Shown in pieces: positions 19,073 through 25,557 of a DNA stretch of 64,000 nucleotides. A program made the translations under genes and the position numbers. The first letter of the stretch is position 1, and the number at the start of each line of letters is the position of its first letter. A model generated the notes under the pieces. That model was given only the letters and a program-made list of their open reading frames with translations, had not been told where the DNA came from and searched no databases. Source of the DNA: an uncultured Veillonellaceae bacterium (GTDB taxonomy: Bacteria; Bacillota; Negativicutes; Selenomonadales; Selenomonadaceae); NCBI GenBank assembly GCA_902785705.1, contig CACZZN010000005.1:62001-126000 (forward strand), in the 5' to 3' direction.

Positions 19073-19110
19073 GTTTCGCTCAATTATTCCTGATTTTGGA
19101 CGAAAAATGC
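19073..19110. repeat. Degraded copy of the acetyltransferase promoter/operator
   Basis: On the minus strand ATTTTTCGTCCAAAATCA then AATAATTGAGCGAAA closely match ATTTTTCCTCCAAAATCA and TATAATTGGGCGAAA at 19732-19767. The match continues into CGCTGGA. The copy has lost the -35 and TATAAT. The acetyltransferase gene lies between the two. Confidence 0.6.
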
Positions 19111-19697
19111 TATCTGTCCCAGCTTTTCTTTGCGTCATCATCTGTAATTTGACGAATCACCCTGCAAGGATTTCCTACGGCCACACTGTTAGATGGAATA
19201 TCCTTTACCACAATGCTGCCGCCTCCTATCACCACGTTGCTTCCAATCGTGACACCGGGCATGACCTGCACGCCTGCACCAATCCAGACATTATCACCGA
19301 CGACAATCGGATATGCGTATTCCAGTCCCTGATTTCTCCGTTCAAAATCGATTGGATGTCCAGACGTGTGGAAACCGCAAGATGGTGCAATGAAAACATC
19401 GTGGCCAAAAGTCACACCTCCTGCATCGAGAATCACCAAACCGTGATTCGCATAAAAATTTTCCCCCACTTTGATTCTATAGCCATAATCACACCAAAAA
19501 TCCGGCTCAATGTGAACATTCTTTCCTGTTTCTCCGATGATCGATTTAATGAACTCATGTCTCTCATCTATATTGTCTATCGCAAGGTTGTTGTATTTTT
19601 GGCAAAGAATCTTGCATTGAATTCTTTCCCTTTCAAGCTCCTTATCGTAATTGGCATCATATAGTTTCTGATGCAGCATCTTATCTTTTTCTGACAT
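19110..19697 (-). CDS. Maltose/galactoside O-acetyltransferase-like protein
   Basis: 195 residues. An N-terminal Maa helix motif (MLHQKLYDANYDKELERERI) precedes a left-handed beta-helix of hexapeptide repeats (about 70-180): VHIEPDFWCDYGYRIKVGE, the catalytic-type His in PSCGFHTSGHP, and VWIGAGVQVMPGVTIGSN. The family moves acetyl from acetyl-CoA to sugar hydroxyls. The ATG at 19697 is chosen because AAAGGAG lies 10 bases upstream and a good promoter and operator sit 45-70 bases upstream. A continuous frame to 20036 exists but crosses those signals. Confidence 0.85.
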   Translation of the reverse strand: MSEKDKMLHQKLYDANYDKELERERIQCKILCQKYNNLAIDNIDERHEFIKSIIGETGKNVHIEPDFWCDYGYRIKVGENFYANHGLVILDAGGVTFGHDVFIAPSCGFHTSGHPIDFERRNQGLEYAYPIVVGDNVWIGAGVQVMPGVTIGSNVVIGGGSIVVKDIPSNSVAVGNPCRVIRQITDDDAKKSWDR

Positions 19698-19740
19698 TTT
19701 AGAAATGCTCCTTTCATCCAGCGAATTCCATTTTCGCCCA

Positions 19741-19769
19741 ATTATATTTGATTTTGGAGGAAAAATCAA
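19741..19769 (-). promoter_or_regulatory. Promoter with overlapping 8-bp-arm operator for the acetyltransferase
   Basis: On the minus strand TTGATT and TATAAT are separated by exactly 17 bases. TTGATTTT-TCCTCC-AAAATCAA is a perfect inverted repeat covering the -35 and most of the spacer. This geometry suits a repressor. No regulator gene is adjacent. Confidence 0.7.
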
Positions 19770-19982
19770 TTCATTGGACAAAAAAGGTGCCTCCGATATC
19801 ATATCCGTTACAATGACACAGTCTTTTGCCCAGTACAGATTAAAATCCTTTTTGCCGGGTCTATACATGACATTCTGAATCCCCTGGTTCTGCAGGAACC
19901 GGAAAACATAGATGCTGCTTTCTTTTTCAACCTGTATGAAAACCGTATTCTGCGCAATCAGATGGTTTAGAAACTCGTTCAT
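19770..19982 (-). other. In-frame coding-like remnant upstream of the acetyltransferase
   Basis: An open stretch begins MNEFLNHLIAQNTVFIQVEK and runs without a stop into the acetyltransferase frame. It includes YVFRFLQNQGIQNVMYRPG and LYWAKDCVIVTDMISEAPFL. It looks like real protein but I do not recognise the family. A promoter lies between it and the acetyltransferase start, so it is more likely the tail of a lost gene than an N-terminal domain. Confidence 0.4.
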
Positions 19983-19984
19983 TA

Positions 19985-20096
19985 AATGAGCTTGGCCCAG
20001 ATTTGCGAGAATTGGCTGTCCATTGCAAGGCGACAAACCGCAGTCATAGTGGTGCTATGTCGAGGATTTGTCAACACAGGATGGGCTGAGGAATTA
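19985..20096. repeat. Dispersed intergenic repeat, copy B
   Basis: It contains CAAGG, AAACCGCAGTCATAG, GCTATGTCGAGG and CAACACAG, matching copy A at 7741-7835. The inner stem is CATAG/CTATG instead of CGTAG/CTACG. The outer ends CTTGGCCCAGATTTG and GGATGGGCTGAGG are roughly inverted copies. It separates the Fic gene from the acetyltransferase remnant. Confidence 0.6.
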
Positions 20097-20130: not shown

Positions 20131-21024
20131 TTATTCGTGTAGTATTTTCAAATATGCGTCCAGCCTTGCGTTGATATACCCGGCAAGCAGTCCTTCCATA
20201 GCGGAAAGATCGTGCTTGACATGGTAGGCATCAAAGGCATTGTAATACATGACCCTGTCGGTAAACTTGATGTCGATAGGCGGATATCCCGCCTTCATCA
20301 GTTCAAGGTTGACAAGCAGTCTGCCGGTTCTGCCGTTGCCGTCGATAAAAGGATGAATGCCTTCAAACTCGATATGAAACCGGGCGAGCTTTGTTACGAT
20401 GTGTTCCTCGCTTGCAGCGTAGTCCTGCAGAAGCTGTTCCATTTTCGGTTCGATAAGATACGGCTGCACAGGTTCATGATGAGCGCCCATAATGCGCACG
20501 GGAACTCTTCTATAAACGCCTCGGTCATCCTTTTTGTCTGCAAGTACAAGATAGTGGATCTGTTTAATGATGCTTTCGGTGAGAGGCGCTTTTTCTTTCA
20601 CAAGCTCTCTGACATAATCGAAAGCCTCTTTATGACCGACAGCTTCCATATGATCTTTCAGCGGTTTCTGAGCTATCGTAAGTCCACGGAGAACAAGGTC
20701 GGTTTCCCGGAGCGTCAGCGTGTTGCCCTCGATAGCGTTGGAGTTATATGTGTATTCGACTGTAAATTCCTCATTGAACCGCTCCAGTTCACCTTCGGTC
20801 AGAGGTCTTCTGCCGTCCAGCTCCACTTTTTTGCGGTTGATCTGAGACAGGATACTATCTTTCGATTTAAACCTGCCATCGACGGGCTTTTCCGCGTCAA
20901 TCGGGATCTTCCAGCCGCGTCCTTCCTGATACGCGCCGGGAATCTTGCCCTCGGAGCATAATACTCTTATTCTTCTGTCGGAAATACCCCATTTCGCGGC
21001 CGCTTCTTTTACCGTCATATACAT
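20131..21024 (-). CDS. Fic family protein with N-terminal HTH
   Basis: 297 residues. An excisionase/MerR-like DNA-binding segment (1-45: MTVKEAAAKWGISDRRIRVL) precedes a Fic domain. Its core HPFIDGNGRTGRLL carries the catalytic His and the GNGR anion site. The inhibitory helix SNAIEGN (S/TxxxEG/N) lies N-terminal to the core, so the enzyme is probably auto-inhibited. Fic proteins usually transfer AMP to protein hydroxyls. The start at 21024 has GGAGGTGA upstream. The DNA-binding domain and the repeat array at its promoter suggest self-regulation, which is inference. Confidence 0.93.
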   Translation of the reverse strand: MYMTVKEAAAKWGISDRRIRVLCSEGKIPGAYQEGRGWKIPIDAEKPVDGRFKSKDSILSQINRKKVELDGRRPLTEGELERFNEEFTVEYTYNSNAIEGNTLTLRETDLVLRGLTIAQKPLKDHMEAVGHKEAFDYVRELVKEKAPLTESIIKQIHYLVLADKKDDRGVYRRVPVRIMGAHHEPVQPYLIEPKMEQLLQDYAASEEHIVTKLARFHIEFEGIHPFIDGNGRTGRLLVNLELMKAGYPPIDIKFTDRVMYYNAFDAYHVKHDLSAMEGLLAGYINARLDAYLKILHE

Positions 21025-21052: not shown

Positions 21053-21081
21053 ATTATACCATACTATCGGAATAATATCAA
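21053..21081 (-). promoter_or_regulatory. Consensus sigma-70 promoter of the Fic gene
   Basis: On the minus strand TTGATA (21081-21076) and TATAAT (21058-21053) are 17 bases apart, about 30 bases before the Fic start. One copy of the TTATTCCG repeat lies in the spacer and touches the -35. Confidence 0.85.
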
Positions 21082-21182
21082 GGTTATCGGAACAACATAT
21101 TACAGAATAGCGGAATAATATAAACAGTTGCGGAATAACCTCCTTCCTGTTGGAACAATGCAGCCGCAATCAGCGGAACAAT
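21068..21182 (-). repeat. Array of six TTRTTCCG repeats upstream of the Fic gene
   Basis: Plus-strand copies of CGGAAYAAYAT begin at about 21068, 21088, 21111, 21131, 21151 (first base changed) and 21174. Spacings are 20, 23, 20, 20 and 23 bases, close to two helical turns, so all copies face one side of the DNA. The innermost copy overlaps the Fic promoter. Confidence 0.8.
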
Positions 21183-21267
21183 AGAAAAGACACCCGGAAA
21201 TTTCCGAGTGCCCTTAAACATCATATTGCAATCTTGGAGTGCTTTTAATATTGTAGTTTGCGGACCG

Positions 21268-22427: not shown

Positions 22428-22978
22428 TATTCATGTCTTACAAGGACTCTCTTAGTGTCCTTGTATTTTTCACGCAATGATGGGATGTTTATATCAGTAC
22501 CTAATACTTCACGAACGACGCCCCATAGACCATCTTTTTCATCCGGGAAGCTATCCATATACTGGTTAAACGGGAGTTCCATCACGAACTTTGCCTGATC
22601 CTCGATGCCTCTGCCCGGAACACCATAATCCAATATAGGAGACAACCCTGTTTTGATGTCTTTTCCAAAAACAATAACTCCTGATGCCGGTGCTCCTCCA
22701 AGCAAGGTCATGCTTATCGCAAGATCAATCATTTTATCATCAAGGCTAATCCATGAGTGATCAAAGTACAATCCTTGCCCAAGCACCTCGCCTATACATA
22801 GAGAAGGTGTATATCCGATCTCAGATAGGCAAACATATAACGCAGCGCACGAAGCGTGGCAGGCACCCCACCATTATTTTCTCTCCATGTACCTGTACAT
22901 GTTTGCCAGAACATCCCCTACATCTTCTTTATAGCCATTTTCTTTAACTGCATAACTTATTTGCTCCGGAACACTCAT
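22427..22978 (-). pseudogene. Hypothetical gene of the GmrSD operon, interrupted by an in-frame TAA
   Basis: An ATG at 22978 overlaps the GmrSD-like stop (ATGA). It opens MSVPEQISYAVKENGYKEDV and runs 34 codons to MYRYMERK, where a TAA stands at 22874-22876. The same frame then continues WWGACHASCAALYVCLSEIG, CIGEVLGQGLYFDHSWISLD and on to VLVRHE. The Cys-His and FDHSW residues look like a papain-like or transglutaminase-like core, but I cannot name the family. Restarting at the GTG at 22786 would lose the Cys-containing part. Confidence 0.65.
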
Positions 22979-25557
22979 TGTGTCTTTCTTAAACAGCAAT
23001 TCTTATATTTTTTCCCGCTTCCGCATGGACACGGATCATTTCTTCCTATTTTCATCACGCGCCCCTTCTTTATTGTTTTATAAAGGAAGTTAGCCATCTG
23101 GAGCCAATCGGTCTCGTTCTCGATGCTGACATTATTCAGCTGAATGAATACCTTGGACGATTTGATGTCGTCGCCACGGTTCCACTGGAGCGTCGTGCCC
23201 AGCGCAGATTCTATTTCTGCTTTATGTGTATACAGGCTATCGAATGCAGCCTTGTTTTCTTGCTTATTTCCTCTGCCAAATACGACCTCTGTCCGCGCCG
23301 CATCAAAGTTTGCTACGCAGCAAAGATAGAAGCCGCCTATACCAAAGAAGCCGTTGATCCAGTTATCCCTTGACGGATTAACATTGGAGAAGGAACCATC
23401 CTCGCCGTGAGCTTTCTGGATAATCGGGAGCGCGTATGTCCAATATTTTCTTCGGAGCTCGTAACGGCTACCCGGTTCATCCTCATTCACTTCGTTCTCA
23501 TCACGCAGATAAAATACCAAGTCTGCCGGATCTTCATCGTACAATTTGAAGAGACGACTCAGAACAGATAGCTTGCTCTGAGTGCTGGTGTTTGTCCATA
23601 CATAGATGCCATCGCCGATCTCAAGCGACTTCGTGAACGCATCCTGATTTGTATTGAAGTGGAGAGCAATGTTCTCCTCCTCCGACATGGCCAGCTTAGT
23701 GATAATGGCCTTATCCTCGGCATACAGAATCTGAATAACCTTCTGGAACATCTCAACCCAGCTCGTTACCGGCTGCTCAGTGTTTTTAAAGGTGAACTTC
23801 GCAATCAGTCGTCCGGTCAGTTCGCCCTCATCCTCAAGCGTATAAGTGTCAAGCTGCTTTTCTTCCGGTTTATATTCTGTGACAGGTGCTGCCCAGATTG
23901 ACAGAGCCCGACCCATGAGATATTCGCTGCGCTCCTCCAGCTCCGCCAGCGTCCACTTGTCCTTCTTGGCAATCCAAGTATTCATGCGGATACCACTGTC
24001 ATCGAAACCGTTCTGCATGGTTCTCTTTTCAGTGAAAGAGCTATTGCTGTATTTCGAGTTGTAGGCCGTCAGCGTAAGATTTGCCATGCGATGCAACCAC
24101 AGCTCATGTATCTGCTCATAGTCATCGCCCAGCTCCTTCTGCCACACCGGTGTCAGATGCTGAGGCATAATGTGCTCAATCGAATAGGTGCCGTCATCAC
24201 AGTGACGGTATACATCCTTATCCTCCGAAGTACCGAAGTTCTCGAAGCGCTCAAGAATGTAAATCTTATTCTTGCTGTTCATCAGATAAACTGGACGTTC
24301 CTCAAATGCCGCCTTAAACTCCACATCGTCCGGGAAGCGGGCACGCTCTTTCTTGGAAAGAAGTGCATACTTGAGCTTCTCGACATAGTTATCCTCGGTA
24401 CCGTCGTATCGTATGATCTCTCGGTGCAGCATGAGGAAGATTTTATTCAGAGCATTTGTCGGCAGGTCACACATCGTCCGGCGGAACAGGTAATTCTCTG
24501 TCGTCAGGAAAATCTCAGTGACCTGTGCCAACGTCAGTTTGTTTTCGTTATATAGGCGCAGCACTTCGAGGAAATACGGCCTTGTTACCGTAGTCTCCAA
24601 ACGATTCAGTCGGTCAATACAAGCGTCAAGGGCGGCACTGCCAGAATTACCATCAAGGAGAATCTGGTACCGCTTTGCGTAGGCCAGCATCTCGGCAAGG
24701 AGTGGTTCCGTTTCGATTTTTCCAAGCTCCACAAAGTCCTTAAAATTGATGTAGATCTTCTTCTGCTGCGGGATGGCCTGCTGCTTCACACTCAGGTAAT
24801 CCCGGATAAAGGCGCTTACATCATACTTCGTGCAAACCTCGATCTTATTCCAGTATTTCTCGTAATAATCCTCCTGCTCCTTAGAAGGCAAGCCCATCAA
24901 TATGAAATTTCTGATCTTATCACCTTCACTGAGGTCAAGACCGGTCGAGTTCAGGCTCTCAAAAATGAGCTGCGGATTGTCGTCCATATCCAGTCGGATG
25001 TTTATAATCTCCAGACAGCAGATCGCATCGTAAAGCTGATCGATGGTGATTTCCTGTTTCTGAATGCGGTCATAAAAATAATCGTAATTCACAGTCAGAT
25101 TGGACTCGCGGATATGCTCTGTCGGATCAGAGAACAGCTTCCCGAAAGCCGTCTGGTCATTCTTTACCGGTTTGAGCTTGATACGGGTATCCTCCGGCTT
25201 CCACTTGTCCACGAGGTATTCCTCGAAAATTCGCTGCTTCAGATTAGCGGTCTCCGGCACAATGACACCCTTATCAATCAAGTTATACATGGCAAGGAAC
25301 AACAGCGAAACTGTCGTAAGACGCTGCTGGCCATCAATGATCAGAAACTCCTCATTGTGCCCATCCGGATTATAGACAGAAACAAGACTCCCGAAAAAGT
25401 GACTCTTCCGGTTCCCCTTGATGATCTTTACAAGATCATCATACAGCTGCTTGCAGTTTTCGGTTTTCCAGTCATAGTTTCTCTGATAAACCGGAATGAC
25501 AAACCGCTTGTCTGAGCCCTCCATATATTTAACGAATTTGCATTCTGAACCTTTCAT
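22975..25557 (-). CDS. GmrSD-like DUF262/DUF1524 restriction protein with DUF4268 and SEC-C tail
   Basis: 860 residues. The DUF262 (ParB/Srx-like) N-terminal domain has IPVYQRNYDWK and IIDGQQRLTT (DGQQR). DUF1524 carries an HNH-type core, SIEHIMPQHLTPVW and HRMANLTLTAYNSKYSN. A DUF4268-like region follows (about 700-830, DNWINGFFGIGGFYLCC). The last 25 residues are a SEC-C zinc motif, RNDPCPCGSGKKYKNCC. GmrSD proteins are type IV enzymes that cut modified phage DNA using NTP. The SEC-C tail is an uncommon addition. Two further genes overlap it in one operon. GAGGAGG precedes the ATG. Confidence 0.9.
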   Translation of the reverse strand: MKGSECKFVKYMEGSDKRFVIPVYQRNYDWKTENCKQLYDDLVKIIKGNRKSHFFGSLVSVYNPDGHNEEFLIIDGQQRLTTVSLLFLAMYNLIDKGVIVPETANLKQRIFEEYLVDKWKPEDTRIKLKPVKNDQTAFGKLFSDPTEHIRESNLTVNYDYFYDRIQKQEITIDQLYDAICCLEIINIRLDMDDNPQLIFESLNSTGLDLSEGDKIRNFILMGLPSKEQEDYYEKYWNKIEVCTKYDVSAFIRDYLSVKQQAIPQQKKIYINFKDFVELGKIETEPLLAEMLAYAKRYQILLDGNSGSAALDACIDRLNRLETTVTRPYFLEVLRLYNENKLTLAQVTEIFLTTENYLFRRTMCDLPTNALNKIFLMLHREIIRYDGTEDNYVEKLKYALLSKKERARFPDDVEFKAAFEERPVYLMNSKNKIYILERFENFGTSEDKDVYRHCDDGTYSIEHIMPQHLTPVWQKELGDDYEQIHELWLHRMANLTLTAYNSKYSNSSFTEKRTMQNGFDDSGIRMNTWIAKKDKWTLAELEERSEYLMGRALSIWAAPVTEYKPEEKQLDTYTLEDEGELTGRLIAKFTFKNTEQPVTSWVEMFQKVIQILYAEDKAIITKLAMSEEENIALHFNTNQDAFTKSLEIGDGIYVWTNTSTQSKLSVLSRLFKLYDEDPADLVFYLRDENEVNEDEPGSRYELRRKYWTYALPIIQKAHGEDGSFSNVNPSRDNWINGFFGIGGFYLCCVANFDAARTEVVFGRGNKQENKAAFDSLYTHKAEIESALGTTLQWNRGDDIKSSKVFIQLNNVSIENETDWLQMANFLYKTIKKGRVMKIGRNDPCPCGSGKKYKNCCLRKTQ

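What the first reader, a model, noticed from the sequence alone, without database searches (positions are those of the whole stretch)
21053..21182. Six phased TTRTTCCG repeats over and upstream of the Fic promoter
Copies are 20-23 bases apart, about two helical turns, and the innermost lies in the spacer of a consensus promoter. The Fic protein carries an N-terminal HTH. A protein stacking on one DNA face could repress its own gene. Such phased arrays are not usual for Fic genes and recall iterons or phage-type operators.
Basis: partly seen in the sequence, partly recalled or inferred. Interest (0 to 1): 0.68.

Follow-up and report, generated by a model that had tools for sequence, protein, structure and literature searches.

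The report
Self-repression operator array before Fic gene
The six evenly spaced repeats are very probably docking sites through which an enzyme that tags other proteins with AMP shuts down its own gene; the arrangement has travelled with this gene across at least three bacterial phyla and into phages.

Summary
In detail: five exact TTRTTCCG copies and one TTGTTCCA, all on the minus strand, 20-23 bp apart, the innermost filling the spacer of a TTGATA-17-TATAAT promoter. It is not chance and not peculiar to this genome. Of 81 close HTH-Fic genes (window included), 71 carry a three-site operator with rigid 23 + 20 bp spacing; the window and 10 others carry a second triad. The triad also precedes the gene in Leptotrichia, Mycoplasmopsis and phages.

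The sites follow the N-terminal HTH_17 domain. Eleven Fic relatives without it have no site. More distant HTH-Fic genes mostly keep one spacer site, often with an inverted partner. HTH_17 proteins fused to other domains carry variant sites at the same promoter position, and the variant tracks the recognition helix (Arg20 with TTCC, other residues mostly with TTCG).

Best explanation: the Fic protein's own HTH binds the array, blocks the promoter and represses its gene. Binding was not measured. CccR, a Yersinia Fic protein with a C-terminal HTH, is a proven precedent with an inverted 46-bp operator. New here: direct-repeat triads, a different HTH, and an inferred specificity rule. Verdict: new variant of a known kind.

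The parts
20131..21024 (-). Fic gene, 297 aa, class II: inhibitory motif SNAIEG, active-site motif HPFIDGNGRTGR, N-terminal HTH_17
   Evidence: Pfam PF02661 E=1e-21 and PF12728 E=1e-7; motifs conserved in 81 homologues; AlphaFold model pLDDT 89
20890..21024 (-). HTH_17 domain, residues 1-45, recognition helix S15-DRRIRVL-C23
   Evidence: Arg17, Arg18, Arg20, Leu22 and Cys23 invariant in 81 proteins
20854..20889 (-). flexible linker between HTH and Fic domain (about residues 46-57)
   Evidence: lowest pLDDT of the model, residues 52-55 below 50
21053..21058 (-). -10 TATAAT
   Evidence: sequence
21068..21075 (-). operator site O3 (TTATTCCG), in the promoter spacer
21076..21081 (-). -35 TTGATA
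   Evidence: sequence
21088..21095 (-). operator site O2 (TTGTTCCG), 20 bp from O3
21111..21118 (-). operator site O1 (TTATTCCG), 23 bp from O2; O1-O2-O3 is the conserved triad
21131..21138 (-). second triad, site O3' (TTATTCCG)
21151..21158 (-). second triad, site O2' (TTGTTCCA, degenerate)
21174..21181 (-). second triad, site O1' (TTGTTCCG)

Best explanation
The array is the autoregulatory operator of the Fic gene. The N-terminal MerR-like HTH_17 domain of the Fic protein reads TATTRTTCCGATA. Molecules bound at the three sites of the inner triad, on one face of the DNA, occupy the promoter spacer (O3) and the DNA over and just upstream of the -35 element (O2, O1), and exclude RNA polymerase. 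A second, weaker triad upstream, present in the window and 10 relatives, adds docking sites and probably steepens or extends repression. Because a 17-bp spacer is already optimal for sigma-70, repression is more likely than MerR-type activation, which works on overlong spacers. Shown here: the sites, their conservation, their link to the HTH domain, and the covariation of site with recognition helix. Inferred: binding, cooperativity, and the sign of regulation. In this reading the protein is a one-gene module that carries an AMP-transferase, its own inhibitory helix and its own repressor domain.
For: (1) Triad with 23/20-bp spacing in 71 of 81 genes (score 22-24 of 24); the site bases are the conserved part, and the DNA between sites is mostly poorly conserved apart from the -35 and -10 elements. 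(2) Same triad before the gene in Mycoplasmopsis, Leptotrichia and, with extra copies, a Streptococcus phage, so it moves with the gene and does not depend on a host regulator. (3) 0 of 11 Fic relatives lacking the HTH have any TTRTTCC or GGAAYAA within 200 bp; most HTH-bearing relatives down to 43% identity do. (4) In 96 HTH_17 representatives, a half-site lies at the same spacer position of the protein's own promoter in most; among HTHs with Arg17-Arg18, Arg20 goes with TTCC in 30 of 30 and non-Arg20 with TTCG in 25 of 33 (Fisher 7e-15; 9 of 9 against 20 of 26 at below 70% identity, 8e-7); Mantel partial r 0.41, p below 0.001. (5) An HTH with the same helix (SDRRVRVLC) on a HipA_C-like protein, not a Fic, has a TTATTCCG inverted pair in its promoter. 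(6) Strict pair and triad patterns occur nowhere else in the own genome, and among 398 genomes of the phylum the triad occurs only before HTH-Fic genes. (7) Experimental precedent CccR, a Fic-HTH autorepressor (PMC9755527).
Against: No binding or expression data. The Arg20 group is mostly one clade, so its sequences are not independent; one non-Fic fusion (L265) and the spread over other HTHs only partly remove this. Direct repeats do not fit a simple two-fold symmetric dimer such as CccR. One close homologue (L034) has no site at all, and two (L066, L075) have it displaced by an insertion. A standalone HTH with Gly20 (L167) also has TTCCG, so residue 20 is not the only determinant.
Confidence: 0.86

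Rival explanations
1. The sites are bound by the Fic HTH but the effect is activation, or a switch between activation and repression as in MerR proteins whose operators lie between -35 and -10.
For: HTH_17 is MerR-like and the conserved site lies in the promoter spacer in most HTH_17 genes examined.
Against: Classical MerR activation acts on 19-20-bp spacers; here the spacer is 17 bp with near-consensus -35 and -10 elements in most loci. CccR represses.
Confidence: 0.07
2. The array is bound by another regulator, encoded by the host or an unlinked element, that controls Fic.
For: None direct; it cannot be excluded without binding data.
Against: The operator is kept with the gene across three phyla and in phages, is missing from HTH-less Fic genes, and its sequence covaries with the gene's own HTH.
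Confidence: 0.04
3. DNA binding mainly controls enzyme activity: the array stores Fic in an inactive (or deAMPylating) assembled state near its gene, and release from DNA switches on AMP transfer.
For: CbFic2 AMPylation and deAMPylation are stimulated by DNA and by DNA-induced dimerisation (PMC10628234). The inhibitory helix is conserved in all homologues. Two triads are more sites than simple promoter occlusion needs.
Against: In CccR, a mutation that abolishes operator binding hardly changes toxicity or AMPylation (PMC9755527). The innermost site always overlaps the promoter, which points to transcription.
Confidence: 0.15
4. The repeats are plasmid-type iterons or a recombination site.
For: Direct repeats about two helical turns apart resemble iterons; the HTH matches phage excisionase profiles (phrog_2655).
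Against: No replication or integrase gene is conserved next to it. Triads lie at a near-fixed distance from the Fic start codon and include its promoter.
Confidence: 0.01

Closest known systems
CccR of Yersinia pseudotuberculosis (class II Fic toxin and transcription factor, PMC9755527)
   Same: Class II Fic protein with a DNA-binding HTH that represses its own promoter through sites near -35 and -10. Its operator is two inverted 10-bp arms over 46 bp; the more distant HTH-Fic genes found here have inverted arms spanning 45-46 bp, matching that geometry.
   Different: HTH is C-terminal and of another type; operator is an inverted pair, whereas the window's group uses direct-repeat triads; CccR is a T6SS-secreted effector, for which nothing was seen here.
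BldC of Streptomyces (PMC5859096)
   Same: MerR-like HTH that binds direct repeats cooperatively along one face of promoter DNA.
   Different: BldC is a 68-aa protein with 9-bp contiguous repeats, one turn apart, and a pleiotropic regulon; here sites are 20 and 23 bp apart, the HTH is tethered to an enzyme, and no second target was found in the genome.
RdfS / excisionase-type winged HTH proteins (PMC11963761)
   Same: Related HTH type (phrog_2655 excisionase match), oligomerises on DNA, negatively autoregulates.
   Different: Those act in excision of mobile elements; no integrase neighbours here.
CbFic2 of Coxiella burnetii (PMC10628234)
   Same: Class II Fic enzyme with an HTH that binds DNA; DNA alters enzymatic activity.
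   Different: C-terminal DeoR-type HTH; no specific natural binding site is known for it.
MerR family operators
   Same: Site lies between -35 and -10.
   Different: 17-bp rather than overlong spacer; direct repeats; no effector-binding domain.

Membership tests
Class II Fic proteins (Fic/DOC, PF02661) | Fic active-site motif HPFx[D/E]GNGRxxR | tested here: met
   HPFIDGNGRTGR; exact motif in 78 of 81 proteins; PF02661 E=1e-21
Class II Fic proteins (Fic/DOC, PF02661) | N-terminal inhibitory helix motif [S/T]xxxE[G/N] | tested here: met
   SNAIEG at 95-100; [ST]xxxE[GN] in 81 of 81
Class II Fic proteins (Fic/DOC, PF02661) | AMP-transfer activity | not testable with these tools
   needs a biochemical assay
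HTH_17 (PF12728) DNA-binding domain | profile match above the curated cut-off | tested here: met
   32.3 bits against cut-off 27; well-predicted HTH with a two-strand wing
Autoregulated Fic-HTH repressors (CccR type) | specific operator overlapping the gene's own promoter | tested here: met
   conserved triad with O3 in the promoter spacer
Autoregulated Fic-HTH repressors (CccR type) | two inverted arms about 46 bp apart in outer span | tested here: not met
   window group has direct repeats only; met instead by more distant homologues (45-46 bp)
Autoregulated Fic-HTH repressors (CccR type) | demonstrated binding and repression | not testable with these tools
   needs EMSA, footprint, reporter
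BldC family | small free-standing MerR-like protein on contiguous 9-bp direct repeats | tested here: not met
   fused to a Fic domain; 20/23-bp spacing
Plasmid iterons | associated replication initiator gene | tested here: not met
   no conserved neighbour gene in 81 loci

The most novel reading that the evidence does not exclude
The rigid direct-repeat triad organises a defined higher-order Fic assembly (three, or with two triads six, tethered enzymes on one DNA face) whose formation both silences the gene and sets the enzyme's AMP-transfer state, so that DNA itself acts as the antitoxin. In addition, HTH_17 domains form a swappable autorepressor cassette with a readable specificity rule, carried by Fic, HipA-like, methyltransferase, AraC-type and other proteins.
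Probability: 0.2. Interest if true: 0.75.

Novelty: new variant of a known kind. Interest (0 to 1): 0.52.

Why it matters
Class II Fic enzymes are widespread and their control is poorly understood. A single gene that carries toxin-like enzyme, inhibitory helix and its own repressor domain, together with its operator, would explain how it can move between phyla and phages and be regulated at once. The helix-to-site covariation makes the DNA specificity of a large group of unstudied HTH_17 proteins predictable from sequence, and the contrast between direct-repeat and inverted operators in the same family gives a clean system for asking how tether length and oligomeric state set operator geometry. 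I found no description of such arrays in the papers that could be searched, but that library lacks most subscription journals.

Tried and rejected
Chance: rejected by shuffles and conservation. Iterons or recombination site: no replication or integrase neighbours conserved. Array shared with unrelated genes: of 32 IMG/VR contigs with a three-copy pattern, 4 are HTH-Fic promoters, 2 are the phage operator without Fic (L087, L115) and the remaining 26 look like short-unit tandem repeats or clustered coincidental matches. Other targets in the own genome: none with paired sites, and the extended site ATTRTTCCGNTA occurs only in this array. Pattern TTGAYATTRTTCCG-N7-11-TATAMT alone also hits non-Fic promoters in viral contigs, so a single spacer site is not diagnostic. 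HTH of the Fic protein against solved structures by sequence: only spurious weak hits. The search for related loci with the standalone HTH in viral contigs gave nothing, so the HTH survey was built from whole-genome searches instead. Search for a conserved partner gene: none.

Full report
Observation. The repeats are real. On the minus strand the region between the Fic ATG (21024) and 21181 holds five exact TTRTTCCG copies and one TTGTTCCA, start-to-start 20, 23, 20, 20 and 23 bp apart counting outward. The expected number per strand in such a stretch is about 0.0035. The innermost copy lies in the 17-bp spacer of a near-consensus promoter, TTGATA-N17-TATAAT. Cumulative distances (0, 20, 43, 63, 83, 106 bp) correspond to 0, 1.9, 4.1, 6.0, 7.9 and 10.1 turns at 10.5 bp per turn, so the 'one face' reading is right.

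The gene. The downstream protein has HTH_17 (PF12728) at residues 2-42 and a Fic domain (PF02661) at 147-241. It carries the class II inhibitory motif SNAIEG and the active motif HPFIDGNGRTGR, both conserved in the family. PADLOC lists relatives as defence candidate PDC-S04 and SoFic. The AlphaFold model (pLDDT 89) shows a well-defined HTH with a small wing, a poorly ordered linker around residues 46-57 and a Fic core like FICD and CdFic.

Conservation. A search of one genome per species gave 80 homologues at 80-94% identity from many Bacillota groups. Their upstream regions carry the same array. Aligned at the promoter, 71 of 81 genes (window included) score 22-24 of 24 for three sites spaced exactly 23 and 20 bp, and the consensus is TATTATTCCG-N13-TATTATTCCGATA-NNN-TTGATA-TTGTTCCG...TATAAT, with the sites and the -35 and -10 elements the most conserved parts. 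The unit is therefore a triad. The window and ten relatives have a second triad upstream with the same internal spacing (22-23 and 19-20 bp) while the distance between triads varies from 20 to 27 bp; shuffled upstream DNA gave none. Six copies are thus two triads.

Spread. The triad accompanies the gene in Mycoplasmopsis cynos (TTATTCCA, TCATTCCG, TTGTTCCG; 23 and 20 bp), in a Leptotrichia shahii plasmid (22 and 20 bp) and, with extra copies, in Streptococcus phage Javan422. Neighbouring genes are not conserved, so gene plus operator is the mobile unit.

Link to the HTH. Among more distant Fic relatives, 0 of 11 without the HTH have any TTRTTCC or GGAAYAA within 200 bp upstream, while most with the HTH do. 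At 44-58% identity the HTH-Fic genes keep one site in the promoter spacer and have an inverted partner upstream with an outer span of 45-46 bp in about nine distinct loci. The proteins with direct-repeat operators have a linker of 25 residues from KP to RP; those with inverted or palindromic operators that could be measured have 30-32. This is confounded with ancestry but suggests that tether length and operator geometry go together.

Specificity covariation. A survey of other HTH_17 proteins in the same genomes (standalone, or fused to AraC-type, MalT-like, methyltransferase and AAA-ATPase domains) shows most have a half-site at the same place, just inside the spacer of their own promoter, but with a different sequence. 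Among HTHs with Arg17-Arg18, Arg20 goes with TTCC in 30 of 30 representatives (two of these degenerate) and other residues with TTCG in 25 of 33 (Fisher 7e-15; 9 of 9 against 20 of 26 at below 70% identity, 8e-7). Across 80 representatives helix distance and site distance correlate (r 0.45, partial 0.41 given the rest of the HTH, p below 0.001). A HipA_C-like protein with the Fic-type helix SDRRVRVLC has the Fic-type site as an inverted pair. The simplest explanation is that each HTH binds its own promoter. Caveats: the Arg20 group is dominated by one clade, and a Gly20 phage protein (L167) also has TTCCG.

Mechanism. Occlusion of the promoter by the protein's own HTH is the best explanation. 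The 17-bp spacer argues against MerR-type activation. The precedent is CccR, a class II Fic toxin whose C-terminal HTH binds AGATAATCAT-N26-ATGATAATCT near -35 and -10 and represses its own gene (PMC9755527). Its 46-nt inverted operator matches the 45-46-bp inverted pairs of the distant homologues found here, which suggests a common Fic-dimer geometry. The window's direct-repeat triads need another assembly, perhaps allowed by the flexible tether, with BldC as a model of a MerR-like HTH on direct repeats (PMC5859096). DNA could also modulate the enzyme, as in CbFic2 (PMC10628234), but in CccR the two functions are separable.

Phage connection. In several phages and prophages the HTH-Fic gene sits between the terminase large subunit and the portal gene (L157, L103, L112, L018, L019, and Javan422 in its annotation). 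Two contigs (L087, L115) have only the triad left in that gap, without Fic and without a -10. They read most simply as operator remnants of a lost Fic gene.

Verdict. The interpretation of self-repression is well supported by comparison but untested at the bench. The finding is a new variant of an established kind, Fic-HTH autorepressors, with a distinctive operator architecture and a useful specificity rule.

Noticed in passing
L115:768-825 and L087 (reverse strand, start): Phage contigs keep the 23/20-bp triad between terminase large subunit and portal genes with no Fic gene and no -10; related phages have HTH-Fic in that gap, so this looks like an operator remnant.
   Followed up: partly
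L172-L201, L205-L264: Most HTH_17 proteins surveyed, standalone or fused to AraC-type, MalT-like, D12 methyltransferase or AAA-ATPase-like domains, have a helix-dependent half-site inside their own promoter spacer, often as an inverted repeat overlapping the -10.
   Followed up: partly
L265 (G289:C3): HTH_17 fused to a weakly matching HipA_C domain, with an inverted TTATTCCG operator; a second toxin-like enzyme type with the same regulatory cassette.
   Followed up: partly
window 22975-25557, minus strand: 860-aa GmrSD_N + GmrSD_C + DUF4268 + SEC-C protein matching PADLOC Orf5/HEC-06/PDC-S11 models; a defence-like gene near the Fic gene.
   Followed up: no
window 19110-20036, minus strand: ORF joining a DUF6577 fragment to a maltose-acetyltransferase cap and hexapeptide repeats; looks chimeric.
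   Followed up: no
window 21186-21215: Imperfect hairpin (AAAGACACCCGGAAA/TTTCCGAGTGCCCTT) directly upstream of the array; similar hairpins with a T run occur at the same place in L003, possibly a terminator of the upstream transcript.
   Followed up: no
L034 upstream of 3001: Close homologue with an intact Fic gene but no operator site at all within 300 bp; promoter apparently replaced.
   Followed up: no
L029: Gene on a 3.5-kb contig binned as Methanocorpusculum (an archaeon); more likely a binning error than transfer to archaea.
   Followed up: no
L274 (NZ_LR214986.1): Record called plasmid 13 of Mycoplasmopsis cynos is 987 kb and is probably the chromosome; the Fic gene there uses TGA for tryptophan and sits beside a type I restriction-modification gene.
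   Followed up: no
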